The notes under the pieces are model-generated. The model was not told the DNA's origin. It did not search any database and saw only the letters and a program-made list of their open reading frames with translations. Of a DNA stretch of 55,791 bases, positions 2,419 through 24,764 are shown piece by piece; the stretch's first letter is position 1, and the number at the start of each line of letters is the position of its first letter. The translations under genes and the position numbers were made by a program. This DNA is from a virus: IMG/VR virus record IMGVR_UViG_3300047476_001434, positions 1 through 55,791 of that record, one strand, 5' to 3'.

Positions 2419-3738
2419 ATGGGAAAATTGAAACCAATTGGTAGTGAAAAACTACAAGGAATGGATAAAATAAATCGCATGATAGAAATCGCGAGATATA
2501 ATGAACACAAACCAAATCCAATTAACGAAAATAAATCGTTAGAATATTCTAAATCTTTTTCCGATGGTCAAAAATATCACATCGTTAAAGAAACTAATGG
2601 ATATGTTATTAAAAAAGGTAATGGATTAAATGAGTCTAATCTAGATTATATTGAACCTTTAAAAGGTAGAAAATATTATTCATCATATTCACAAGCTTTA
2701 AAAAGGCTTAATATTATGGCCAAAGATGTTAATTCTTCAGAAGGATATCTGAAAAATTTGTCTCTATTTGAAAGTGAATCTGAGGTTGATGATAGATATT
2801 TTTTAAAGTCTGACAATGGGGAAACTAATGAACAAGAAGACCCTGCGGCCGCTGCAACACCTCCAGCACCCGCACCTGATATGGCTCCTGCCCCTGCACC
2901 TGATATGGCTCCTACACCTGATATGGACCCTGAACTTGACGACATGGGAGATGAAGACATGGGTGATGAAGACATGGGTGATGAAGATGAAGAAAAAGTA
3001 ACGTTTAAAGACATCCAAAAATTAACAGGGAAGTTAGGTCAAAAAATAAGAACTTTTATGGATGACGAAGAAAATGAAATGTCATCAAAAGATATTAAAT
3101 ATGTAATAAATTCAATTTTATCAGCATTAGATTTAGATGCGTTAGAAGATGAAGATTTAGAATCAATTATTGCTAAATTAGAAGGTGAAGAAGAAGGTGA
3201 AGAAGAAGGAGCTGAGGGTGAAGAATCACCTGAGGAAGTCCCAACACCTGAAACAGGAGTTGCTCCTGAAGCGGTTCCCGCACCACCAGTAGCACCTGAA
3301 GGTGGCGAAGTTGCGGAATTTGATTTTTCAGACGAAGACGAAGATGATGATTTCTATCCTCGTCACGGAGCAAGAAAAAGACATATGTATGATGAATTAT
3401 CGGAAGAAGAATCTGATGCAGTAAAAGGTATGATTGATGGTATTTTTTCAGAATCAAAAGTTGACAACATCCTAAAAAAATATTTCAGAATTGATGAAAA
3501 AGAAAAATCGTTATTAGAAGAAAAAAGAAAACAAAAAACTTTAATTAACGAAAATACAAATAAAAATATCAGCAGAATTAAAAATTTATCTGAGTCTATC
3601 GCTCAAGAAATTTCGGCGACTAAATTAATTAAAAAATACCCTAAAGTTAAATTTATCGGTAAGTCACAACAGAATAATTTAGTTTTTGAAAGTAATAATA
3701 AAAGAATTAAAGTAACTCCTAAAGGAAGTATTTTATGA
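2419..3738 (+). CDS. Acidic, Pro/Ala-rich structural-type protein, unknown function
   Basis: 439 aa, not recognised. The N-terminal ~125 residues are mixed-charge, followed by a Pro/Ala/Met-rich linker and a strongly acidic tract built from DEDMG units (DNA about 2940-2990). A short ordered segment (FKDIQKLTGKLGQKIRTFMDD) follows, then Glu-rich and Pro-rich stretches and a basic C-terminal ~100 residues. The acidic unit is almost the same as one in the predicted scaffold at 12927, which hints at a core or assembly role. Several [IL]NE/LSE sites that an S80 prohead protease could cut are present (PINE, GLNE, LINE, NLSE). It begins an apparent transcription unit that ends at the terminator at 6471 and overlaps the next gene by 4 nt (ATGA). 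Confidence is high that it is a gene, low on function. Confidence 0.75.
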   Translation: MGKLKPIGSEKLQGMDKINRMIEIARYNEHKPNPINENKSLEYSKSFSDGQKYHIVKETNGYVIKKGNGLNESNLDYIEPLKGRKYYSSYSQALKRLNIMAKDVNSSEGYLKNLSLFESESEVDDRYFLKSDNGETNEQEDPAAAATPPAPAPDMAPAPAPDMAPTPDMDPELDDMGDEDMGDEDMGDEDEEKVTFKDIQKLTGKLGQKIRTFMDDEENEMSSKDIKYVINSILSALDLDALEDEDLESIIAKLEGEEEGEEEGAEGEESPEEVPTPETGVAPEAVPAPPVAPEGGEVAEFDFSDEDEDDDFYPRHGARKRHMYDELSEEESDAVKGMIDGIFSESKVDNILKKYFRIDEKEKSLLEEKRKQKTLINENTNKNISRIKNLSESIAQEISATKLIKKYPKVKFIGKSQQNNLVFESNNKRIKVTPKGSIL

Positions 3739-6527: not shown

Positions 6528-8294
6528 ATGAGTTTAACAAAAGAACAAGTTCTTCTTGAGTATGTAAAATGTATGAGAGACACCCCATACGCATTAAGAA
6601 CATATCTACAAACTTACGATAATACCGCATCAAAATACGTACCTTTAGAGTTGTTTCCTGACCAAGTCACATTACTTGACGACTATGAAAAATATAATGA
6701 GAATATCGCGTTAAAATATCGACAAGCAGGTGTATCAACAGTAACCGCCGCTTGGATATCAAAGAAGTTAGTTTTCGCTAAGAAAGAAAAACCTGAAAAA
6801 ATTCTTATCATCGCCAACAAATTAGACACATCAATCGAGATGGCTAATAAAATTAGAATGTTTGTTAGTCAATGGCCTTCTTGGACGGGTGTTGATATAG
6901 ACCCTAATAAGAAATCAACAAAACATTGGAGAATAACAAATGGTTGTGAAATTAAAGCGGTTGCAACATCTAAGGATGCTTTACGTGGTTTCACCCCGAC
7001 AGTTCTTGTATTTGATGAGGCGGCATTTATTGAGGCGGATAGCGATTTCTGGGCAGCTTGTATGGCGTCATTATCAACGGGAGGTAAAGTAATCGTTGTA
7101 TCAACACCAAACGGATATGACCCAATTTATTACGAAATATATGACCAAGCGTTAAGAAACATGAACGATTTTAAAATCACTGAAATGTTTTGGTACAGAG
7201 ACCCTCGTTACGCTAAGGATTTATTTTTTGTTAAGACTGAGAGTATTATCCATTATTTACTCAATAAAGAGGAGTATGTTATTGATGATATCATTAAATG
7301 GGAAGATATCCCATTTGAGAATAGGGATTACGTTGAAGCCACGAAACTTATGGAACAAGGATATAAACCTTGTTCTGATTGGTTTGAAAAGATGGTAAAA
7401 AAATTAAAGTACGATAAACGTAAAGTTTCTCAGGAGTTGGAGTGTAACTTTTTAGGGTCAGGTGATAATGTATTTGATTCTTTAATGATGCAAAAGATTA
7501 AAGAGAATATGATTAGAGAACCCCAAAATAAAATGATGGGGAATGCTTTATGGATTTGGAAAGACCCTGTAGTTGGTCATAAATATGTTATGGGTGTTGA
7601 CGTTTCAAGGGGTGATAGTGAGGACTTTAGTTCATTTCAAATTATTGATTTTGATACTAGAGAACAAGTTGCGGAATACGTAGGTAAACTACCACCCGAC
7701 ACAATGGCCGAGATATGTTATAAGTGGGCAAACATGTATTCTTGTTATATTGTAATAGATATTACAGGTGGTATGGGTGTATCTACCGCAAGAAAATTAC
7801 AAGAGATAGGATATAAAAATCTATACATTGATGGTGTAGACGGTACTAACAAATGGAAGTACGACCCTAAAGCATTAGAAAAAATACCAGGTATTAATTT
7901 TAATAACAAAAGAGTTCAGATAATCGCTTCTTTTGAAGAAGCTATGAGACACGACTTTAAAATATATAGTAACCGATTGTTCAATGAAATGAATACGTTT
8001 GTCTATATAAATGGTAGACCTGACCATCAAAAAGGACATCATGATGACCTTATTATGGGTATTGCAATGGCGACTTATGTCGCTGAAGCGTCTTTTAGTA
8101 ATTTAACTAAAGTAACAGAACATACTAAAGCCATGATAGACTCTTGGTCAGTTAGTAATAATGAGAATGTGAGCCAACAAATAGCGTTTAATCCCGTGAT
8201 TCCTCACTATAATGAAAGAATTTCTCAATTTAATAATACAATACCTAGAGAGGAATACATGAAACACGCTTGGTTGTTTAATGGTAGGCGATAA
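6528..8294 (+). CDS. terL: Terminase large subunit (T4 gp17-like packaging ATPase/nuclease)
   Basis: 588 aa. This is the motor that translocates phage DNA into the prohead through the portal and cuts the concatemer. Visible motifs: a variant Walker A R65QAGVST71, Walker B VLVFDE with D163-E164, and a coupling-type VVSTPNG around 190-196. The RNase H-like nuclease shows D358 in GVDVSRGD, D411 in IVIDITGG and D506/D507 in GHHDD. The length and order fit the T4 gp17 family. No Shine-Dalgarno is visible; the start follows a terminator and a promoter motif. A 48-aa ORF and the portal gene follow directly, the usual terminase-portal order. No separate small terminase was recognised upstream. Confidence 0.97.
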   Translation: MSLTKEQVLLEYVKCMRDTPYALRTYLQTYDNTASKYVPLELFPDQVTLLDDYEKYNENIALKYRQAGVSTVTAAWISKKLVFAKKEKPEKILIIANKLDTSIEMANKIRMFVSQWPSWTGVDIDPNKKSTKHWRITNGCEIKAVATSKDALRGFTPTVLVFDEAAFIEADSDFWAACMASLSTGGKVIVVSTPNGYDPIYYEIYDQALRNMNDFKITEMFWYRDPRYAKDLFFVKTESIIHYLLNKEEYVIDDIIKWEDIPFENRDYVEATKLMEQGYKPCSDWFEKMVKKLKYDKRKVSQELECNFLGSGDNVFDSLMMQKIKENMIREPQNKMMGNALWIWKDPVVGHKYVMGVDVSRGDSEDFSSFQIIDFDTREQVAEYVGKLPPDTMAEICYKWANMYSCYIVIDITGGMGVSTARKLQEIGYKNLYIDGVDGTNKWKYDPKALEKIPGINFNNKRVQIIASFEEAMRHDFKIYSNRLFNEMNTFVYINGRPDHQKGHHDDLIMGIAMATYVAEASFSNLTKVTEHTKAMIDSWSVSNNENVSQQIAFNPVIPHYNERISQFNNTIPREEYMKHAWLFNGRR

Positions 8295-8501: not shown

Positions 8502-10304
8502 ATGGAAAATAATAACAATAATCAATTAACGGTTTGGCAAAGGTTATCGCACGCATTTGGGCCAAACGCTTTGTTAAATCAAGATTACCCAACATACAAA
8601 TTTGATAGAAAAGAGTTACTGAAAACAAACTCAAAACAAGAGTACGAAAAAGAATTATTACAAGCTCAACAAACATATTACCTATCAAATCAATGGACAA
8701 AAATAGAAAGTAATTTATATACTCAGGCAGTATACTATGAACCAACAAGATTAGCGTCATTTTATGATTATGAATCAATGGAGTATACCCCTGAAATATC
8801 GGCAGCATTAGACATTTATGGTGAGGAATCTACGACCTCAGACCAAAATGGGTATATGTTACAAATTTATTCCGAATCAAAACGAATAAAAGGGATATTA
8901 ACCGATTTATTCAATAATGTTTTAGACGTGAATACAAATTTACCAATGTGGACTAGAAACACATGTAAGTACGGTGATAATTTTGTATACCTAAAATTAG
9001 ATTCTGAAAAAGGAGTTGTTGGATGTATGCAATTACCTAACATTGAGATTGAAAGATTGGAGAGGGGTATGCCCGCTCAAGCAACAAGACAAAACGTTGA
9101 CGAACCTGCCGAAAACAAAGGTCTTAGATTTAAGTGGAAAGTAAAAGACATGGAATTTAATTCATGGGAAATAGCTCACTTTAGATTGTTAGGTGATGAT
9201 AGAAAATTACCATACGGAACTTCTATGTTAGAAAAGGCAAGACGTATATGGAAACAATTATTATTATCTGAAGATGCAATGTTGATTTACCGTACATCAA
9301 GAGCCCCTGAAAGAAGGGTCTTTAAAGTGTTTGTTGGTAATATGGATGATAAGGATGTTGAGGCATATGTACAACGTGTCGCAAACAAATTTAAAAGAAA
9401 TCAAGTTGTTGATGATAAAACAGGAAATGTTGACTTACGTTTCAATCAAATGGCCGTTGACCAAGATTATTTTATTCCTGTTAGGGACCCTGCTCAAGCG
9501 TCCCCTATAGATACTTTACCAGGCGCACAAAACTTAGCGGAAATTGCGGATATTGAATATATCCAAAAGAAATTATTAACTGCTTTACGTGTACCTAAAG
9601 CATTTTTAGGTTTTGAGGAAGTTGTCGGTGAGGGTAAAAATCTTTCATTACAGGATATTCGTTTCGCTAGGACAATCAACAGAATCCAAAAATCTATGAT
9701 TGCAGAATTAAATAAAATTGCAATTATCCATTTATTTTTATTAGGTTTTGAGGATGAATTAAATAACTTTACATTAGGTTTAACTAACCCATCAACACAG
9801 GCCGATTTATTAAAAATTGATGTATTTAAAGAAAAATTATTAGCTTATAAAGACGCGGTAACTGCAATAGAAGGTATTGCACCCACATCAATATCATGGG
9901 CGAAAAAACATATTCTTGGATTTTCTGATGAAGAAATTAAACTTGATTTACAACAACAAAGAATCGAAAAAGCGGTTGGAGCTGAATTAACTAACACCGC
10001 AACTATCATAACTAAAACAGGTTTATTTGACAATATTGATAAATTATATGGCGGGTCTTCTTCGGGAGATACTGCAGGAGGAGCCGCTCCACCACCTCCA
10101 CCATCAGGGGGAGAATCACCACCTCCTGGAGGTGATATGGGAGGAGAACCAGGAATTACTCCTGAATCTTTTAACAAAGATAATTTAAAAATATTATTAG
10201 AATCCGATTCATTAATTGACCAAGAATCATTTATAGATTTATCTAAAGCTAAAAATTCTTTAGGGGAAATTGAGGTTCAGCTGAATAAACTTCTAGGTGG
10301 TTGA
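8502..10304 (+). CDS. Portal protein (T4 gp20-like)
   Basis: 600 aa. It forms the dodecameric portal ring at the unique head vertex where the terminase docks and where head assembly starts. The gp20-type core is recognisable: residues ~85-110 (TPEISAALDIYGEES), an aromatic-rich clip/stem region (WKVKDMEFNSWEIAHFRLLG) and the segment YGTSMLEKARRIWKQLLL. The C-terminus carries a Gly/Pro low-complexity stretch (APPPPPSGG, about 10080-10160) and then a short helix. The gene ends within the promoter motif of the next gene. Position after terL and before the prohead protease matches the T4 head cluster. Confidence 0.93.
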   Translation: MENNNNNQLTVWQRLSHAFGPNALLNQDYPTYKFDRKELLKTNSKQEYEKELLQAQQTYYLSNQWTKIESNLYTQAVYYEPTRLASFYDYESMEYTPEISAALDIYGEESTTSDQNGYMLQIYSESKRIKGILTDLFNNVLDVNTNLPMWTRNTCKYGDNFVYLKLDSEKGVVGCMQLPNIEIERLERGMPAQATRQNVDEPAENKGLRFKWKVKDMEFNSWEIAHFRLLGDDRKLPYGTSMLEKARRIWKQLLLSEDAMLIYRTSRAPERRVFKVFVGNMDDKDVEAYVQRVANKFKRNQVVDDKTGNVDLRFNQMAVDQDYFIPVRDPAQASPIDTLPGAQNLAEIADIEYIQKKLLTALRVPKAFLGFEEVVGEGKNLSLQDIRFARTINRIQKSMIAELNKIAIIHLFLLGFEDELNNFTLGLTNPSTQADLLKIDVFKEKLLAYKDAVTAIEGIAPTSISWAKKHILGFSDEEIKLDLQQQRIEKAVGAELTNTATIITKTGLFDNIDKLYGGSSSGDTAGGAAPPPPPSGGESPPPGGDMGGEPGITPESFNKDNLKILLESDSLIDQESFIDLSKAKNSLGEIEVQLNKLLGG

Positions 10305-10311
10305 TATTTAT
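10304..10311 (+). promoter_or_regulatory. Late-promoter-like motif ATATTTAT
   Basis: ATATTTAT overlaps the portal stop codon and lies 15 nt before the ATG at 10327. Confidence 0.55.
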
Positions 10312-10326
10312 TTTAAAAACAAAACA

Positions 10327-11043
10327 ATGATTAAATTTGGTGTTATAAAATCTAAGATAGAAAAAATTTTAGTCGAATCTTATTCGGACAAAACTTTTAA
10401 ATACGAATTAAAAAATTTTAAAAATAATGTGTTGGACAATAAAAATATTAGTCAGATATATTATTTGTACGATGAGATTAAATCTAAAAAAGGATTAAAT
10501 GAGTCGTACGCATCTGAATATATTAATGAATGTATAACAATATATGAAAACACAATTAATAAAATTAAAACATCAGATATTAATAAATTAAAAAAGTGGG
10601 TAAACGGAGTTAAATCATCAAACGAATATGAACATATAGATAATTTATTTTCTAATGATGTTTTAACTATTGAATCAAAAATAAAAAGTAAAAAAATTAT
10701 TAGAGAGTCGTTAACAAAAAGTTTACCGATTCAAAAAGAATTTCTAAAATTACCGTTATCCACAATGGTTAGTATTGCTAATAAAACAATACAAAATTAT
10801 GTTGAGTCTCTTAATGAATCCGAAAAAAAAGAATTAGCTGATTTTTTATCTATGGACGACAAACCTTTAGAAGAAGACTTCAACAAAATAAAAAAAGAAG
10901 TTATATCTAAATTGGGTAATTTAAAAGAAGGTTCTGATTCCGAATCATTACATAGAATTAACGAAACCGTTGATAAAGTATCGTCAGAAAAATATGACAA
11001 GTTTAATTATTTTAAATTAAAGAAATTAAACGAGAATCTTTAA
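10327..11043 (+). CDS. Lys/Ser/Asn-rich helical protein, possible prohead core component
   Basis: I start it at ATG 10327 (238 aa), after the promoter motif; an in-frame GTG at 10297 would put the motif inside the gene. The protein is charged, helical and poor in aromatic residues, with repeated [IL]NE sites (KGLNE, EYINE, SLNE, RINE, KLNE) that match the S80 prohead-protease cleavage signature. In T4 the portal gene is followed by small core genes (67, 68) that are cut to fragments by gp21. Position and cleavage-site density fit such a role, but I see no sequence similarity to prove it. Its stop codon overlaps the convergent bS21 gene through a shared TTAA. Confidence 0.6.
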   Translation: MIKFGVIKSKIEKILVESYSDKTFKYELKNFKNNVLDNKNISQIYYLYDEIKSKKGLNESYASEYINECITIYENTINKIKTSDINKLKKWVNGVKSSNEYEHIDNLFSNDVLTIESKIKSKKIIRESLTKSLPIQKEFLKLPLSTMVSIANKTIQNYVESLNESEKKELADFLSMDDKPLEEDFNKIKKEVISKLGNLKEGSDSESLHRINETVDKVSSEKYDKFNYFKLKKLNENL

Positions 11044-11231
11044 TTATCTTCAGATTTAAAATTTTTCTGCACATATTTAGCTTTCTGTAATTCGGCTCTT
11101 TTTATCACTGAAGGTTTTACAAAAGTTTTTCTTTTATTTAGTTCACTCATTTGACGAGTTTTAATAACCTTACTCTTGTATTGTTTTAAAGCTTGTTCGA
11201 TTGATTTGTTTTTAACTACTACTATTATCAT
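11040..11231 (-). CDS. rpsU: Phage-encoded ribosomal protein bS21
   Basis: 63 aa from ATG at 11231 (the frame is open further upstream, but the S21 family begins at MIIVVV). The family pattern is clear: a beta-strand start, then SIEQALKQYKSKVIKT, then a basic helix (SELNKRKTFVKPSVIKRAEL) and KAKYVQK, closest in style to Bacteroidetes bS21. bS21 sits on the 30S platform by the anti-Shine-Dalgarno end of 16S rRNA and takes part in initiation. Here it is the only minus-strand gene inside the head module. It has an ATATTTAT motif 5 nt upstream and a TAnnTTTG-type box 45 nt upstream. No Shine-Dalgarno is visible. It could replace or supplement the host protein during infection (inference). Confidence 0.85.
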   Translation of the reverse strand: MIIVVVKNKSIEQALKQYKSKVIKTRQMSELNKRKTFVKPSVIKRAELQKAKYVQKNFKSEDN

Positions 11232-11236
11232 ATAAT

Positions 11237-11244
11237 ATAAATAT
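11237..11244 (-). promoter_or_regulatory. Late-promoter-like motif ATATTTAT before bS21
   Basis: Read on the minus strand, ATATTTAT lies only 5 nt before the bS21 ATG, so a transcript from it would be nearly leaderless if it acts as a -10 element. Confidence 0.5.
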
Positions 11245-11276
11245 ATCTTAAAAAGTCCCTTTTTTGACTTCTGACA

Positions 11277-11284: not shown

Positions 11285-11306
11285 CTTATTTTTTTAAAAA
11301 ATAAAC

Positions 11307-11771
11307 GTGAAATTATGGAAAAGAATGAAAAAGGGGAAAACCTCAAAAATCACAGGATTCAAAACCGCAAAGGTATTATATGGAACTGTTGATTCAATTA
11401 AATTTAGGTCATTGTACCTTAATATCCAAACATGGGTTGAACCCATCAAAGACTCTGAAAATTGGAACAGGGTCGTCCAAAACTTAAGTAGGTCAATAAA
11501 ACATGTTGTACACGATTCTTTAGACAGAAATTTTTTTGACGATAAATTTATTGTTGATTTAGATTTACGTTCAAGTGGGATATCTTTAGGTAAAAAATCT
11601 TTTTTAAATTTAGAAGTTAACTTGTATCTAAAAGAAGAAGAAATCGACTTTAAGTCAACAACATTAAAAGAAACATTAAAAAAACTATCAAAAGATATAT
11701 ATCAAAATGGTTTTTTAGAATCTAAGTATTTTAATTTTTATTTAACCAAAAGAAAAGAACTTGTAGAATAA
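11307..11771 (+). CDS. Conserved-type phage protein, unknown function
   Basis: 154 aa from GTG 11307, or 148 aa from the in-frame ATG at 11325; I cannot decide the start. After a very basic N-terminus the protein looks like a small alpha/beta domain (KVLYGTVDSIKFRSLYLNIQTWVEP; FIVDLDLRSSGISLGKKSFLNLEVNLYL). There is no signal peptide. It sits between portal/bS21 and the prohead protease, the place of small head genes in T4, so a head-assembly role is possible. No family recognised. Confidence 0.65.
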   Translation: MKLWKRMKKGKTSKITGFKTAKVLYGTVDSIKFRSLYLNIQTWVEPIKDSENWNRVVQNLSRSIKHVVHDSLDRNFFDDKFIVDLDLRSSGISLGKKSFLNLEVNLYLKEEEIDFKSTTLKETLKKLSKDIYQNGFLESKYFNFYLTKRKELVE

Positions 11772-11809: not shown

Positions 11810-12532
11810 ATGAATTTACAAGTTTTAAAACCTGGACAATCTGGTAAAGGTATTCTAATCGAATACGATGCGGGATTTATTAATCCAAGGGAAACAAAAA
11901 ATCAATATATTATGGAAAATAAAGTTCAGATGGACCACACAAAACCATTTGAATTTTATGCGGTACTTCAAAAGTATAACACGCCAAATAGAAACGGTAG
12001 AATTTATCCTGAAAGAATTCTTAAAAGAGAAGCGGACAATTATAAAAAAATGATTGAGAAGGGGACATCTTTATCCGAACTAAACCATCCTGAATCTTCA
12101 CTTATTGACTTAGATAGAGTATCTCACATTATTACTGAAATTTGGTGGGACGGACCAATATTAATGGGTAAATTAAAATTATTAACAAGTCCAGGGTTCC
12201 ATGAAAGAGGAATTGTATCAACCAAAGGTGATATGGCAGCAAACTATTTAAGACAAGGAGTTACGTTAGGTATTTCATCAAGAGGTGTTGGTTCTCTAAA
12301 AAAAGTTGGGGAACAAAATGAAGTACAAGATGATTTTGAATTAATTTGTTTTGACTTAGTTTCTTCACCATCAACTCCAGGGGCTTATTTATTTTTAAAT
12401 CCTGAAGATAGAAATAACTTCGAAGAAAACTTAGATGAGGAAAAAAGAATGTCAGTTGAAAGAAATGTTGGGCCTTCTGCGAACAAATCACTTGACTTAA
12501 TGAAGAAACTATCCGATTATTTAGGTTATTAA
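11810..12532 (+). CDS. Prohead core protease (T4 gp21-like, peptidase family S80)
   Basis: 240 aa. The T4 counterpart cleaves capsid, scaffold and internal proteins after [IL]-x-E during head maturation. The herpesvirus-protease-like fold is supported by the His motif LNHPES (H93), the strand VSHIITEIWWDGPILMGKLKLL and the Ser motif TLGISSRGVG (S156/S157, likely nucleophile), then DFELICFDLVSSPSTPGA. The order protease, (69-aa protein), scaffold, major capsid protein is that of T4 genes 21-22-23. Candidate substrates in this window are the capsid protein (cut after INE60) and several proteins with short [IL]xE leaders. Confidence 0.9.
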   Translation: MNLQVLKPGQSGKGILIEYDAGFINPRETKNQYIMENKVQMDHTKPFEFYAVLQKYNTPNRNGRIYPERILKREADNYKKMIEKGTSLSELNHPESSLIDLDRVSHIITEIWWDGPILMGKLKLLTSPGFHERGIVSTKGDMAANYLRQGVTLGISSRGVGSLKKVGEQNEVQDDFELICFDLVSSPSTPGAYLFLNPEDRNNFEENLDEEKRMSVERNVGPSANKSLDLMKKLSDYLGY

Positions 12533-12542
12533 ATAATTAATT

Positions 12543-12752
12543 ATGGACGAAAAATATTTTATTGCACGAGTAACTATTGATTTGGTAGATTCTGAATCAG
12601 GTAAAGTTAAAAAACAAAAAGAAGAAAAGTTAGTTAGGGGTTATAATCCAACTGATGTTGAAGCGAAAGTAACCAAGGTATTTGAACATTATACTCAAGA
12701 TTGGAGAATAACCGCGATTGTTGAAAGCAAAATTGATGAGGTGATAGACTAA
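12543..12752 (+). CDS. Small protein, DUF4494-like
   Basis: 69 aa. The pattern (YFIARVTIDL, then a basic GKVKKQKEEKLVRGYNPTDVEAKV segment, then WRITAIVESK) resembles DUF4494, a small beta-alpha-beta protein common in Bacteroidetes and their phages. The match is from memory of the pattern and is not certain. It begins 10 nt after the protease gene, is followed by a terminator, and sits between protease and scaffold. Function unknown. Confidence 0.65.
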   Translation: MDEKYFIARVTIDLVDSESGKVKKQKEEKLVRGYNPTDVEAKVTKVFEHYTQDWRITAIVESKIDEVID

Positions 12753-14653: not shown

Positions 14654-16525
14654 ATGGGAGCATTATTAGAATCAGGTCTTGTTGGTAACATCGGTTTGAA
14701 ACACCTTAAAGTTATCAAAGAAGATACAATTAACAAATGGGATAGATTAGGATTCCTAGAAGGTCTTAAAGGACATTTAAAAGAGAACGTGGCTCAGTTA
14801 TATGAGAACCAAGCGTCTTTCCTAATCAATGAAGCAACTTCTGACGGTTCATCAGGTTCATTCGAAACTGTGGTTTTCCCAATCGTTAGACGTGTATTCT
14901 CTAAATTATTAGCGAACGATATCGTATCTGTACAAGCTATGAACTTACCAATCGGTAAATTGTTCTACTTCGTACCTAAAATCCAAGGTTATAACAATGG
15001 TGACTATGATTTTGCAACCTATGAAGGTGGTTCAGGAGCTCACTACGGACCTGTTGGAGCGGTAGACGGTTTAACTGCTGACGAAGCTAAAGCTGGAGAA
15101 GGTTACAATCAAGGTACTGGTACTTATAATCCTACTTACAAGAAAAATCTTTATGATTTATTCTACGAAGGTAATGAAGGTCAATTAGACCCTCCAGGAT
15201 TATTTGACTACTCTAAAGGTCAATGGTCGGCAATTACAGTTACTACAACTGCACAAGTATGGAACGGTTCTAACTTGGTTGATGCTGACGGGGCTTATGA
15301 CGGTGAAAACGTTAGAAAAGTAATCGTTAAAATGTGTGGTTTCGCAAGTGTTGGTAACGGTAAATTAATCGGTCCTGATGGAAATGAGTACGATACAGAA
15401 TCTTTCTTATCTGACTTAAGATTATTTGCTAATACTGATTTCTTAGACGCGGAATCTGCATGTACACCATTATTTAACGCTGACGCTTCTGCGAAATCTT
15501 TATTGTTTAGAGTTGTTACTCAACAATATGGTCAAGGAATTGTTAGTGGTTTATCAAATAGAGCACAAGCACAATGGCCTACTGAAGGTAACGGTGGTTA
15601 TTACAATAACATCTGTAACCCAGAAGGTTGTATCTATTTAGAAGTTGACTTATCTTGTCCTGTATGTGCTAACTGTAACGCAACATCTTTAGATGGTTAT
15701 ACAGGAAGTACTATTGGTACATTAGGTAATGAAGACATTACTGCGGTATTCAGACGTTACAAAGAACTTGAATTCGAAGACAAAATCGGTGAGGTTTCTT
15801 TCGACCTTGAGTCTGTAACAGTTTCTGTAACTGAAAGAAAATTAAGAGCACAATGGTCACCTGAACTAGCTCAAGACGTAGCGGCATTCCAAAACATCGA
15901 TGCTGAAGCTGAATTAACGGCTTTATTATCTGAACAAGTTGCAGCGGAAATTGACCGTGAAATCTTAAGAGACCTTAGAAAAGGTGCGGCTTGGAACTTA
16001 CGTTGGGATTACAACGGATGGAGAAGAATCAACGCAACTACTGCGTATACACAAAAAGACTGGAACCAAACATTGATTACTGCAATCAACCAATTGTCAG
16101 CACAAATCCACAAATCTACTTTAAGAGGTGGGGCTAACTGGATTGTTGTATCTTCTGAGGTTTCTGCGATTTTTGATGATTTAGAATACTTCCACGTATC
16201 TAACGCGTCTCCTGAGCAAGACCAATACAACATGGGTATTGAAAGAGTTGGTACATTATCAGGTCGTTACCAAGTTTACCGTGACCCTTACTTCCCACCT
16301 AACCAAGTGTTAATCGGGCACAAAGGAACATCATTGTTAGACACAGGTTACATCTACGCACCGTATGTACCTCTACAATTAACTCCTACAATGTACAACC
16401 CGTTCAACTTTACACCTATCAAAGGTATTATGACACGTTACGCTAAGAAAATGGTTAACAACCGTTTCTACGGACGTATCACAGTTGACGGTATCCGTAC
16501 ATTCGACTTAAGAGAATTGAGATAA
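14654..16525 (+). CDS. Major capsid protein (T4 gp23-like)
   Basis: 623 aa; forms the hexamers of the head. gp23-type features: an N-terminal leader of 60 residues ending SFLINE before ATSDG (fits gp21 cleavage after E60, as T4 gp23 is cut after E65); the segment VVFPIVRRVFSKLLANDIVS; the central ERKLRAQWSPELAQDV and AEAELTALLSEQVAAEIDRE; and a C-terminal MTRYAKKMVNNRFYGRITVDG. There is an unusual Cys-rich loop (C321, C326, C335, C338, C341). The start has no Shine-Dalgarno but a ~40-nt leader made almost wholly of A with few T/C, typical of highly translated Bacteroidetes genes. Followed by a strong terminator. Confidence 0.96.
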   Translation: MGALLESGLVGNIGLKHLKVIKEDTINKWDRLGFLEGLKGHLKENVAQLYENQASFLINEATSDGSSGSFETVVFPIVRRVFSKLLANDIVSVQAMNLPIGKLFYFVPKIQGYNNGDYDFATYEGGSGAHYGPVGAVDGLTADEAKAGEGYNQGTGTYNPTYKKNLYDLFYEGNEGQLDPPGLFDYSKGQWSAITVTTTAQVWNGSNLVDADGAYDGENVRKVIVKMCGFASVGNGKLIGPDGNEYDTESFLSDLRLFANTDFLDAESACTPLFNADASAKSLLFRVVTQQYGQGIVSGLSNRAQAQWPTEGNGGYYNNICNPEGCIYLEVDLSCPVCANCNATSLDGYTGSTIGTLGNEDITAVFRRYKELEFEDKIGEVSFDLESVTVSVTERKLRAQWSPELAQDVAAFQNIDAEAELTALLSEQVAAEIDREILRDLRKGAAWNLRWDYNGWRRINATTAYTQKDWNQTLITAINQLSAQIHKSTLRGGANWIVVSSEVSAIFDDLEYFHVSNASPEQDQYNMGIERVGTLSGRYQVYRDPYFPPNQVLIGHKGTSLLDTGYIYAPYVPLQLTPTMYNPFNFTPIKGIMTRYAKKMVNNRFYGRITVDGIRTFDLRELR

Positions 16526-21234: not shown

Positions 21235-21695
21235 CAGTAAGGAGATGAACATCTCTTTTTACCGTCAAGACCTGGTTTTTTACCTTTACATACTTGAACT
21301 GCATAACCATTAGCATAAGCACTTGGGTATACGTCAAATTTAGATTTTGCGGCGGCTTTACCTCTTGAGCAAAGTTTAGTACCTGATTTTTTTCTTCCTT
21401 CCATCATTACCGTATCTTTATCATCTATAGACATAGATAACTCCATACCATCTTTCTTTGATTCGTTCATAATAAAATCGAATACTTGGTCTAAAGTGTT
21501 TTTAGACTCGGCAATGTGGTCTTGAGCCCAATCATGACCGTTCTCCAAAATAGACTCGACCATATCACGGTCTAAGTCTAATAATAAATCACATTGTCTT
21601 CTCATTTGTTCTAAGTTTGAGAAGAACATGTATCGACTACTTTCGTAAGCCTCTTCTTTTAATACTCGTTTAATTATATTATTTAAATTTTTCAT
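21231..21695 (-). CDS. Small protein with conserved Cys-rich C-terminal domain
   Basis: 154 aa. The N-terminal helix MKNLNNIIKRVLKE (LKE 12-14) resembles the leaders of neighbouring genes. The middle is acidic and helical. The C-terminal ~52 residues (KLCSRGKAAAKSKFDVYPS, AYANGYAVQVCKGKKPG, CSSPYC) match a small Cys-containing domain seen repeatedly in phages and large DNA viruses; function unknown. It overlaps the upstream gene by 4 nt and ends in the TTAA shared with the 20611 gene. It is the last gene of the long minus-strand run. Confidence 0.65.
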   Translation of the reverse strand: MKNLNNIIKRVLKEEAYESSRYMFFSNLEQMRRQCDLLLDLDRDMVESILENGHDWAQDHIAESKNTLDQVFDFIMNESKKDGMELSMSIDDKDTVMMEGRKKSGTKLCSRGKAAAKSKFDVYPSAYANGYAVQVCKGKKPGLDGKKRCSSPYC

Positions 21696-22009
21696 ATATC
21701 TTCTTTTCCTAAGTTTAATGATTTAACATAAGCTCTATCTACATAGTCTATAAATTTCTTACCATAAATTTTGGCCATCCTATCCATAATTAATTGTGGA
21801 TTTTTTCTCATATACCTAATTATGTCAGGAGGAATTTGGTCCTCATATTTACCAAAGATAGACTCAATCTCTTTTTCTCTTGGTTGTTTCCTAACATTTG
21901 GTTCCACGGTAAATGAAGGTAAAATACCAATAGTATCGTCGTTTTCTTTGATAATACTATTGATAATTCTTTTAATATCAGATTCTGTAATCTTAACTAT
22001 TCTTTTCAT
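21692..22009 (-). CDS. Small protein with amphipathic leader
   Basis: 105 aa from ATG 22009. An in-frame ATG at 22030 overlaps the upstream gene, and the leader motif MKRIVKITESDIKRIINSIIKE favours 22009 (motif split here at residues 1-22). The leader ends in IKE and looks like the MK-[RK]-x-V-x-x-[TS]-E-x-[DE] amphipathic helices common at the ends of proteins in such phages. The rest is a mixed-charge globular segment (PPDIIRYMRKNPQLIMDRMA). Likely packaged or virion-associated by analogy; unproven. Confidence 0.6.
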   Translation of the reverse strand: MKRIVKITESDIKRIINSIIKENDDTIGILPSFTVEPNVRKQPREKEIESIFGKYEDQIPPDIIRYMRKNPQLIMDRMAKIYGKKFIDYVDRAYVKSLNLGKEDI

Positions 22010-22013
22010 ATTA

Positions 22014-24764
22014 TTAACTATAATATCCATTAGTTCCTCCTAATTGAACTGCGTCTAACTGAATAATTGTTCTAAGTCTACCAGCTCCATCAGTTCCACC
22101 ACTTGTCCATACAGGATGAGGAGGGTTAATTGTTACAGTGTTACCACTACAATCTAAAATACATATAGGTTGTTCTGTATTTGCACTGTATATAAAATAA
22201 GTATTATCTAATCGACATTGTTGTTGATTTAAGTAAAATTCAACTAAAGGAAATTCATCTCCTGTGTTACCAATAGGACATGTGTTAATTACTGTATAAC
22301 ATGTTCCATTTGTATCACTGATAATAGGTTGGGAAATTCCATTTAAACCAGTAATTTCCAACCATTGGGGTAATGTTACACTTACATAAGAGGGTACCAA
22401 TGTGTCACAGTTGATTACTGTAATACCTACAGTTGCGTTTTGTTGACATTCTTCACAAGTTCCGTATGATGACATATTTTCACCCTCAAAAATTATATCA
22501 GGAACACCATATGACGATTCGTTCCATGTATCGATAATTTCAAAACATAACCAATCAGAGTTACCCCAATGAGATTTAACGAATTCACCTACCGAATAAA
22601 CACCTGATGGTGCCACAAATAATCCAGTTATACCTAAATTACACTCTTCACAATAAAACGTTTCATAAGTAGTAGAACTACAATCTAAACAAGACCCTGA
22701 TGATATTAAACTATAGAAAGTATGGTCACCATCTAAATCAGCTCTAACTCCTGTAACTTCACAACAAACACTATAAATTGGATGGTAAAATGAATCCCCT
22801 ATTTGAACATATTCGTAACTATCTATTGACCCGTTTAAAAAATCAAAAGTTTCACCAAGAGTATATATAGTGTAATATGACACAAAATAAACATTTCCAG
22901 AATTATTAAAAATTCCTTTAACTTGATTGACATCACCAATATTATTGTTATATATATTTATAATTGTATTAGTTAAAGAATCTATCACATAGATAGCGTT
23001 TTCACAATAATCGGTTACGTATAATTTACTATTTACTGAATCAAATAATATTGTTTTGTCGCAACAACAACTATTAAAACCAGGACTAAAGTTTGTTAAA
23101 CTTGTTGTTGAAATATTGAATAATGAATACTGAGTTGACTGACCTGCCAAATATATAGAGGTTCCTCCTGCATAACTCATTGATGTTATTCCATATCCTA
23201 CATTTATAGTATTAAGTAAGTTATATGAAACGGCATCACGTATTAATATTGTTCCATTTATACATGAAAAATATAAGTTTGAGCCAATCTGAATAACTGA
23301 GGTTGGCCAAACACTTCCTATGTAATATGTCGTATTTAATGTGTATGAGTTATATGCGGTAATACTATAAACCGTAAAGAAATCATTACCCGCACTATAA
23401 TTTCTCCATGTTATGTAAAATCTACTATCATTTTGGTTAAAATATACATATGTCGGATAACTAGACGACCCTACTGGGTTAGGTACTACCGTAGTTAATC
23501 CTGTTGAAATGTCAATAATAGCGAATGTATTACCGTAGTAGTTAGCAACGACTAAAATTCCGTTATTCTCATCAAGGGATAATGAACGAGGATTACCACC
23601 ACCTGTACCCCATGAATTTAAAAGAGTGTTAGTGTTTAAATCGATAACTGAAACTTGACTTGAATACTCACTTGTTACATACGCGTAGTTAGTATTAGAA
23701 TCAACAACCATTGAATTACCACCATAAGACCCTGTTGAAGTGATATTCTCAAGAATTAGTTGGGTTATTTCGGTACACGTTGTAAAATCATAAGTAACTC
23801 CATGACACTCAATACAGTTCTCACAATCCGCGTGAGGGTCAAAATCCGCTAATTCTGAATATGTTATTCCTGTTGACGGGTCGGCGGGACCTGTTATTTC
23901 ATAACAACCCTGACCTGTTGAGATATTTGTTGCCTCACCAACACTAAACAATGCGGACGCCCATACAACATCTTCATGACCATCAAGACAATTAGTGATG
24001 ATAGTTTTTTCAGCTACTGTTGCAAGACAATCTTCACATGTAATTCCTGTACTTTCAGGGTTCCCAAGGTCAGTAACTACAATACCAGTGATAGGATTTC
24101 CCTGAATAATTTCTTTAACCGTACCACAAAATTGAGTAATCTCACCTAAGTCGGTAAAGGTGATTAAGTGGTTTGAGTATGTGTTATTAGGTAATGCGAC
24201 ATAATATACGTCAGACGTTAAACACTCATATACTTCGTAAATAATCGGACTAATAGCCAAACAAGTCTCACAATCTGTTTGTGTTGTTGCTGAGAATAAT
24301 GTTGCAAATCGTATCCTATTAGGGTCAGTAAATGACTTTTCTTTAAACTCAAAACAACCGTTGTATCTTTCATTACCCCCAAATTTACCCGATAAATAAA
24401 AATCGAGATAAAAAACATCACCGATAGTTGGTGTTGGGGTAAAATCGGTGGTATTAAAATACACTTCACCAAACACTCCAGAACAATCTGTAAAGATTAA
24501 AGTGTTTGAATTTACATCTAAACATTCTTGACATCCCTCTATCCCGTAAGAACCAAGGACAACCGCATTAGGTGTTAACACGTCGGTATTTTTTTCACCA
24601 AGAATTGTATAACAATTATATGGTATTGGTTTTCTTGACTCACTAGTACCACTAAATAGGTATGTATTACCAACAATTAATGTTGATGAGGGGTCATCAA
24701 AATAAGCCCCGTATTGATTTCCTGATGCACAATCCTGTATATTAAAATATCTAATATTTGCCAT
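22014..24764 (-). CDS. Large modular adhesin/tail-fibre-like protein with beta-propeller
   Basis: 916 aa. It consists of repeated beta-type modules linked by CxxC pairs (CQEC, CETC, CEDC, CENCIEC, CLDC, CEEC, CEEC) before and after a YVTN/NHL-like beta-propeller (~345-640, e.g. NYAYVTSEYSSQVSVIDL and SKLYVTDYCENAIYVIDS). The C-terminal 57 residues form a module also encoded alone by the next gene upstream (24776). No signal peptide is seen. Place downstream of baseplate-like genes and the binding-type architecture fit a tail fibre or tail-tip receptor-binding protein. Cys pairs could bind metal or form disulphides in the extracellular virion. It starts with an A-rich leader without Shine-Dalgarno. 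Confidence 0.75.
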   Translation of the reverse strand: MANIRYFNIQDCASGNQYGAYFDDPSSTLIVGNTYLFSGTSESRKPIPYNCYTILGEKNTDVLTPNAVVLGSYGIEGCQECLDVNSNTLIFTDCSGVFGEVYFNTTDFTPTPTIGDVFYLDFYLSGKFGGNERYNGCFEFKEKSFTDPNRIRFATLFSATTQTDCETCLAISPIIYEVYECLTSDVYYVALPNNTYSNHLITFTDLGEITQFCGTVKEIIQGNPITGIVVTDLGNPESTGITCEDCLATVAEKTIITNCLDGHEDVVWASALFSVGEATNISTGQGCYEITGPADPSTGITYSELADFDPHADCENCIECHGVTYDFTTCTEITQLILENITSTGSYGGNSMVVDSNTNYAYVTSEYSSQVSVIDLNTNTLLNSWGTGGGNPRSLSLDENNGILVVANYYGNTFAIIDISTGLTTVVPNPVGSSSYPTYVYFNQNDSRFYITWRNYSAGNDFFTVYSITAYNSYTLNTTYYIGSVWPTSVIQIGSNLYFSCINGTILIRDAVSYNLLNTINVGYGITSMSYAGGTSIYLAGQSTQYSLFNISTTSLTNFSPGFNSCCCDKTILFDSVNSKLYVTDYCENAIYVIDSLTNTIINIYNNNIGDVNQVKGIFNNSGNVYFVSYYTIYTLGETFDFLNGSIDSYEYVQIGDSFYHPIYSVCCEVTGVRADLDGDHTFYSLISSGSCLDCSSTTYETFYCEECNLGITGLFVAPSGVYSVGEFVKSHWGNSDWLCFEIIDTWNESSYGVPDIIFEGENMSSYGTCEECQQNATVGITVINCDTLVPSYVSVTLPQWLEITGLNGISQPIISDTNGTCYTVINTCPIGNTGDEFPLVEFYLNQQQCRLDNTYFIYSANTEQPICILDCSGNTVTINPPHPVWTSGGTDGAGRLRTIIQLDAVQLGGTNGYYS
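22017..22187 (-). repeat. Repeat copy 1: C-terminal module of the 916-aa protein
   Basis: Encodes 57 residues (SANTEQPICILDCSGN to GGTNGYYS) also found in the 63-aa gene at 24776. I count 46 of 57 identical residues, and the DNA is largely identical over the central part. Confidence 0.9.

What the first reader, a model, noticed from the sequence alone, without database searches (positions are those of the whole stretch)
11040..11231. Phage bS21 gene in a genome almost free of Shine-Dalgarno sequences
Seen: a 63-aa bS21 homologue alone on the minus strand in the head module, with no Shine-Dalgarno; phage start codons here have A-rich leaders rather than AGGAG. Known: bS21 is one of the ribosomal proteins most often found in phages, and in Flavobacterium the protein helps hide the anti-Shine-Dalgarno tail, with the host rpsU gene reported to use a strong Shine-Dalgarno for feedback. 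Inference: the phage copy lacks that signal, so it would escape such feedback and keep ribosomes in the SD-blind state that favours phage mRNAs.
Basis: partly seen in the sequence, partly recalled or inferred. Interest (0 to 1): 0.8.

Follow-up and report, generated by a model that had tools for sequence, protein, structure and literature searches.

The report
Phage ribosomal protein without host feedback signal
A virus of Bacteroidota bacteria carries its own copy of ribosomal protein bS21 that keeps the residue needed to hide the ribosome's mRNA-pairing tail, but lacks the strong start signal by which bacterial copies of the gene limit themselves, so the virus copy should be made without that brake.

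Summary
Observation confirmed. Window 11040-11231(-) encodes a 63-aa bS21 (PF01165), nearest in the PDB to Flavobacterium johnsoniae bS21, with Tyr at the Tyr54 position, reversed among TerL, portal, protease and capsid genes. That arrangement (Chen 2022) and SD-based rpsU autoregulation (McNutt 2023) are published, so the gene is a new member of a known kind.

All 80 Flavobacteriales rpsU leaders pair with the 16S tail at -17.6 kcal/mol or better; the window leader scores -1.5. Of 90 distinct phage leaders only one clade has a real SD (GGAGG). In 250 of 259 phage loci bS21 keeps the reversed head-module position. 'Lacks the signal' therefore holds broadly; 'favours phage mRNAs' does not follow, because host mRNAs are SD-less too.

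New detail: bS21 carries the ATATTTAT promoter-like motif found before virion genes, four bases from its ATG, predicting a nearly leaderless mRNA.

Best reading: a bS21 timed with virion genes that enters ribosomes, keeps the anti-SD hidden and so holds host rpsU down, while its own SD-less mRNA escapes. Incorporation, timing and repression are inferred; the host is unknown.

The parts
11040..11231 (-). phage bS21 coding sequence (63 aa)
   Evidence: translation; PF01165; PDB 7jil_z E 3e-12; two-helix model, all 16 fold matches are bS21 or its mitochondrial counterpart; pN/pS median 0.27 among 18 close relatives
11236..11245 (-). proximal promoter-like motif TATATTTATA, 4 nt from the ATG; predicts a leader of about 2 nt (inference)
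   Evidence: motif at <=1 mismatch in 72 of 90 phage bS21 leaders, about 6.5 expected from shuffles; similar motif before TerL, protease and other virion genes; start-site rule from PMC6847099
11277..11284 (-). distal TATATTTG, matches the host -7 consensus; possible second bS21 promoter giving a leader of about 45 nt
   Evidence: sequence; seen mainly in the window's own subclade
11263..11266 (+). TTTG, -33-like box of the diverging neighbour gene
   Evidence: TTTGAC or TTTGAT found in 84 leaders; TAHHTTT exactly 20 nt further in 57 of 84, at most 4 at any other spacing
11287..11294 (+). TATTTTTT, -7-like box of the diverging neighbour gene
11325..11771 (+). conserved diverging neighbour (148 aa, MKKGKTS...), function unknown, in the place Chen 2022 calls bS21_CN
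   Evidence: present beside bS21 in nearly all relatives; AlphaFold pLDDT 89; no Pfam match and no PHROG match for this protein
10327..11043 (+). convergent neighbour, unknown; true start is probably the ATG at 10327 rather than the GTG at 10297
   Evidence: GATATTTATT 14 nt before this ATG; motif in 74 of 76 relatives
6528..8294 (+). terminase large subunit
   Evidence: PHROG 5989, E 9e-24
8502..10304 (+). portal protein
   Evidence: PHROG 213, E 4e-67
11810..12532 (+). head maturation protease
   Evidence: PHROG 207, E 2e-42
14654..16525 (+). major capsid protein
   Evidence: PHROG 138, E 3e-66

Best explanation
This is a functional phage copy of Bacteroidota bS21. It is transcribed from a phage-type promoter shared with virion genes, so it is made when those genes are. 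The protein takes the bS21 place on the host 30S and, through its conserved C-terminal block and aromatic residue, keeps the 16S 3' tail in the bS21-bS18-bS6 pocket. In a host whose rpsU is SD-autoregulated, such ribosomes count as bS21-replete, so host rpsU translation stays low. The phage gene has no SD and is translated like any SD-less message (or as a nearly leaderless one), so its product does not switch it off, and the phage copy can displace the host copy in new or exchanging ribosomes. Shown by sequence: family, conserved residue, SD absence, position, shared motif, purifying selection. Inferred: promoter activity and timing, leader length, incorporation, ASD hiding and repression of host rpsU.
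For: Family and alignment to F. johnsoniae bS21. Aromatic residue at the Tyr54 position in all 84 complete distinct phage proteins: Y 71, H 12, F 1. SD contrast between host and phage leaders. Reversed head-module position in 250 of 259 loci. ATATTTAT: 10 of 20 window occurrences lie sense-upstream of genes, 0.7 expected; 19 of 44 and 26 of 57 in two relatives, 1.4 and 1.6 expected. Transcription with structural genes in related phages (PMC9723584). Ribosomes lacking bS21 translate rpsU better and SD-less mRNAs worse (PMC9976891).
Against: No ribosome, RNA or protein data for this phage. The host is unidentified and some Bacteroidota rpsU genes lack an SD. One related phage clade has an SD on bS21. 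The distal TATATTTG could be the main promoter. The bS21 model fits known structures with rmsd near 6 A, so the inter-helix angle is not fixed.
Confidence: 0.6

Rival explanations
1. Default initiation. The gene lacks an SD only because this phage, like its host, initiates without SD everywhere; escape from feedback is a by-product without selective meaning.
For: Window leaders are no stronger than shuffled ones; two large relatives have leader medians of -2.3 and -2.0; in the window subclade the bases before the ATG are promoter-like motif.
Against: In the L075/L169 clade the bS21 leader carries a conserved AAAAGGAGGAAAAAAAT although the leaders of the 157 longer genes of G001 have median -2.3, so an SD on this gene can be gained and kept.
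Confidence: 0.35
2. Message selection. The phage protein makes specialised ribosomes that prefer phage mRNAs through its diverged first helix and linker (KT[KR]Q instead of KTG[TV]), as Chen et al. proposed.
For: KT[KR]Q or a close variant in 81 of 86 phage proteins against KTG[TV] in 77 of 80 Flavobacteriales ones; published divergence in the N-terminal helix.
Against: Lys at the Gly position also occurs in some cellular Bacteroidota (L404, L407); no phage-specific initiation signal was found apart from A-richness, which also helps host genes (PMC6847099).
Confidence: 0.35
3. Extra-ribosomal or virion role, for example packaged in the particle or bound to another RNA.
For: Fixed place among head genes; Chen et al. 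raise packaging as possible; bS21 has been reported as a part of the OLE RNP in Halalkalibacterium (PMC12054373).
Against: Residues for ASD hiding are kept and the gene is under purifying selection.
Confidence: 0.07
4. Host gene caught in a misassembled contig.
For: None beyond similarity to cellular bS21.
Against: Same position and orientation in 250 of 259 viral loci; phage proteins group apart from cellular ones in the tree, with moderate support.
Confidence: 0.01

Closest known systems
bS21-encoding freshwater Bacteroidetes myophages (Chen et al. 2022, PMC9723584)
   Same: bS21 on the reverse strand between TerL, portal, protease and MCP; conserved diverging neighbour; aromatic residue at position 54; inferred Bacteroidetes host
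   Different: That paper, in the parts read here, does not analyse leaders, SD or promoters. The window is a 56-kb fragment, so genome size cannot be compared.
rpsU of Flavobacterium johnsoniae and relatives (McNutt et al. 2023, PMC9976891)
   Same: Homologous protein with the ASD-hiding Tyr
   Different: The host gene has an extended SD (-17.6 to -24.8 kcal/mol in 80 relatives) and is autoregulated; the phage gene has none
L075/L168/L169 phage clade
   Same: Same gene, same locus and orientation, same promoter-like motif
   Different: Has GGAGG 8-9 nt before the ATG (-12.2 kcal/mol), so it may be under host-like feedback
bS21 of Pelagibacter phage HTVC008M (Mizuno et al. 2019, PMC6375957)
   Same: Phage-encoded bS21; that one was shown to enter E. 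coli ribosomes (as cited in PMC9723584)
   Different: Different host group; not compared by sequence here

Membership tests
bS21 (PF01165) | profile match above curated cut-off | tested here: met
   44 bits against 27; 43.4 bits
bS21 (PF01165) | two helices as in ribosome-bound bS21 | tested here: met
   helices 11-35 and 40-58, mean pLDDT 83 but pTM 0.42; all 16 matches are bS21 or mitochondrial bS21, Z up to 5.2, rmsd near 6 A
bS21 (PF01165) | presence on the 30S subunit | not testable with these tools
   needs ribosomes from infected or expressing cells
Bacteroidia-type ASD-hiding bS21 | aromatic residue at the Tyr54 position | tested here: met
   Tyr in KAKYVQ aligned with KAAYIQ of Flavobacterium
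Bacteroidia-type ASD-hiding bS21 | 3' tail of 16S sequestered with the phage protein bound | not testable with these tools
   needs cryo-EM or reporter assays
SD-autoregulated rpsU | extended SD, pairing below about -13 kcal/mol | tested here: not met
   -1.5 kcal/mol; +0.3 to -1.5 with four tail definitions
Chen 2022 bS21 phage group | bS21 reversed among TerL, portal, protease, MCP | tested here: met
Chen 2022 bS21 phage group | large genome of about 300 kb | not testable with these tools
   the record is a 55.8-kb linear fragment
Chen 2022 bS21 phage group | Bacteroidota host | tested here: inconclusive
   indirect only: bS21 nearest Flavobacterium, SD-less genes, host-type TTTG-N20-TAHHTTT promoter, a DUF4494 gene (its Bacteroidota link is from memory)

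The most novel reading that the evidence does not exclude
In the window subclade the bS21 mRNA is nearly leaderless. It could then be read even by ribosomes that have lost bS21, which are poor at ordinary SD-less messages, while its product restores ASD hiding and shuts host rpsU. That would be a self-starting, feedback-immune switch that replaces host bS21 with phage bS21; the GGAGG clade would be a natural variant that gained or kept the brake.
Probability: 0.2. Interest if true: 0.78.

Novelty: new member of a known kind. Interest (0 to 1): 0.5.

Why it matters
Why so many aquatic phages carry bS21 is an open question. The comparison shows that, in the Bacteroidota-type phages sampled, the gene is almost always cut off from the SD signal that makes host rpsU self-limiting, and that it shares a promoter-like motif with virion genes. 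This yields a simple prediction (phage bS21 represses host rpsU but not itself) that can be tested in F. johnsoniae with reporters already described in the literature, and a natural contrast: one clade with GGAGG.

Tried and rejected
AGTCAAAA, which stands out upstream of bS21 in many relatives, looked at first like a bS21 promoter element. It is better explained as the complement of the -33-like TTTG of the diverging gene, because TAHHTTT follows at exactly 20 nt. The neighbour protein's predicted fold resembled bS6 (ferredoxin-like), but the bS6 match is one of many unrelated ones (Z 6.2, rank 28), so no ribosomal role is claimed; its one clear fold match is an uncharacterised myovirus protein. 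The signature KT[KR]Q was considered as phage-exclusive and dropped, since Lys at that place occurs in some cellular proteins. That bS21 is the only SD gene in G001 was considered: GGAGG-ATG counts there are near the control (24 against 18) and a few other genes have it, so I claim only that its SD is among the strongest. A first dN/dS over all 63-aa proteins gave about 1 because proteins of different clades were compared unaligned; restricted to the gap-free subclade pN/pS is 0.27. L041 and L044 score -8.6 and -10.4, but the G-rich stretch lies in or just before the promoter motif, so it is probably not in the mRNA. Searches of deposited phages gave only distant bS21 matches and no match to the first 25 kb of the window. 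The paper on the F. johnsoniae ribosome structure was not held, so contacts other than Tyr54 were not checked one by one.

Full report
The minus strand at 11040-11231 encodes a 63-aa bS21 that matches PF01165 well above its cut-off. Its nearest solved relative is the F. johnsoniae ribosome chain 7jil_z. An AlphaFold model has the two expected helices, and all 16 chains that the fold comparison returned are bS21 or its mitochondrial counterpart, although the inter-helix angle differs. The gene is alone on its strand between the portal and protease genes, with TerL and capsid genes nearby. The window is an IMG/VR virus fragment of 55,791 bases; its first 25 kb have no close match among deposited phages.

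Much of this is published. Chen et al. 2022 (PMC9723584) described bS21 on the reverse strand within the same gene set in freshwater Bacteroidetes myophages, an aromatic residue at position 54 in all of them, and transcription together with structural genes. McNutt et al. 2023 (PMC9976891) showed that rpsU of F. johnsoniae has an extended Shine-Dalgarno sequence read by ribosomes that lack bS21 and that such ribosomes are poor on SD-less mRNAs, and speculated about phages. In the parts of both papers that I read I found no analysis of phage bS21 leaders, and a literature search for the combination returned no paper on it.

Four scans of viral contigs gave 259 usable phage bS21 loci, 90 distinct protein-plus-leader combinations. 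Pairing energies of the last 25 leader bases with the 16S tail were computed for these, for 80 Flavobacteriales rpsU genes and for 70 rpsU genes drawn from the whole phylum. The Flavobacteriales leaders lie between -17.6 and -24.8 kcal/mol, median -22.2; the window leader scores -1.5. Across the phylum 49 of 70 are below -10; that set holds the 30 top-scoring matches plus 40 that I picked from further down the list, so it is not a random sample. Among phage leaders only one clade, L075/L078/L168/L169, has a true SD (AAAAGGAGGAAAAAAAT-ATG, -12.2); two others reach -8.6 and -10.4 through bases that fall in or before the promoter motif. Four tail definitions give the same picture.

The position is very conserved: in 250 of 259 loci every detected head-module neighbour lies on the strand opposite to bS21. 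In a tree of 168 proteins, 82 of 84 phage copies group together with one huge-phage copy, next to Bacteroidia proteins whose genes mostly carry SDs, but support is moderate and the alignment is short. The aromatic residue is present in all 84 complete distinct phage proteins. Within 18 gap-free relatives the median pN/pS is 0.27, so the gene is under purifying selection.

The promoter region is informative. ATATTTAT occurs 20 times in the window, 10 of them within 75 nt upstream of a gene in the sense direction against 0.7 expected, including TerL, protease, other head genes and bS21. In two large relatives the numbers are 19 of 44 and 26 of 57 against 1.4 and 1.6. Across relatives a motif of this kind precedes the protease gene in 78 of 80 and the convergent neighbour in 74 of 76, ending mostly 10-16 nt before the ATG. 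Before bS21 a match with at most one mismatch is present in 72 of 90 leaders, about 6.5 expected, mostly in two classes: ending 4-6 nt before the ATG (window subclade and some others) or 12-20 nt before it. In F. johnsoniae the -7 element spans -12 to -5 and the start site is 4-5 nt after it (PMC6847099). By that rule the window bS21 mRNA would have a leader of about 2 nt. In keeping with this, the class close to the ATG lacks the A at -3 that helps initiation (4%, against 53% in the other class and 52% of window genes), though these sequences are related to one another. A third clade (such as L011 to L025 and L064) lacks the proximal motif and has only a distal TATATTT[AG]; the window has both, so which one is used is not settled. 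That these promoters are late is inferred from the genes they precede and from the published expression data.

The diverging neighbour has its own signal: TTTG followed after exactly 20 nt by TAHHTTT in 57 of 84 leaders, against at most 4 at any other spacing, which is the host housekeeping pattern. The two genes thus start back to back within about 100 bp, one from a host-type and one from a phage-type promoter.

Mechanism. Given the published biochemistry, a bS21 with the Tyr that enters the ribosome hides the anti-SD, which keeps SD-autoregulated host rpsU low; the phage gene, SD-less, is outside that loop. This would let the phage copy accumulate at the host copy's expense. Incorporation and repression are inferred. 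If phage messages are preferred it must be through another feature, such as the diverged N-terminal helix that Chen et al. point to. E. coli 61S ribosomes, which lack bS1 and bS21 among others, prefer leaderless mRNAs (PMC12186496); this is the basis of the more novel reading and has not been tested in Bacteroidota.

Limits. The host is unknown; about a third of the sampled Bacteroidota rpsU genes have no strong SD; no RNA, protein or ribosome data exist for this phage. The pairing energies use one generic Bacteroidota 16S tail sequence entered from memory, not that of the host. Gene starts for the 53 window genes were chosen by hand from the ORF list.

Noticed in passing
window 11325-11771 (+): Conserved 148-aa diverging neighbour (MKKGKTS...), confident alpha/beta model, no Pfam match, no PHROG match for the window protein; only clear fold match is an uncharacterised myovirus protein (A0A8S5L9A5, TM 0.82). 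Its slot between portal and protease is that of T4 prohead core genes 67/68 (from memory), so it may be a head core protein.
   Followed up: partly
L075, L078, L168, L169; G001 (L348 region): A clade of related phages with GGAGG before bS21 although their other genes are SD-less on average; possible host-like feedback on a phage gene.
   Followed up: partly
L343 (LR756501.1, 735-kb phage), 2990-3192: bS21 with AAAGGAGGATAA-ATG; AGGAGG-ATG is commoner in this genome than in the control (31 against 18), so it may use SDs more widely.
   Followed up: partly
window 2379, 6506, 8294, 11786, 12898, 16648, 17790, 20598 (+) and 26453, 11244 (-): ATATTTAT promoter-like motif shared by virion genes; in relatives the motif-to-ATG distance falls in two groups (12-14 and 20-25 nt), suggesting a class of nearly leaderless phage mRNAs.
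   Followed up: partly
window 21692-22030 (-): Only strong SD-like leader among the window genes (AATTAGGAGGAACTA-ATG, -10.2 kcal/mol), lying inside the upstream coding sequence.
   Followed up: no
window 10297-11043 (+): True start is probably the ATG at 10327, since the GTG at 10297 lies upstream of the promoter-like motif GATATTTATT.
   Followed up: yes
window 12543-12752 (+): 69-aa protein matching DUF4494 just above its cut-off.
   Followed up: no
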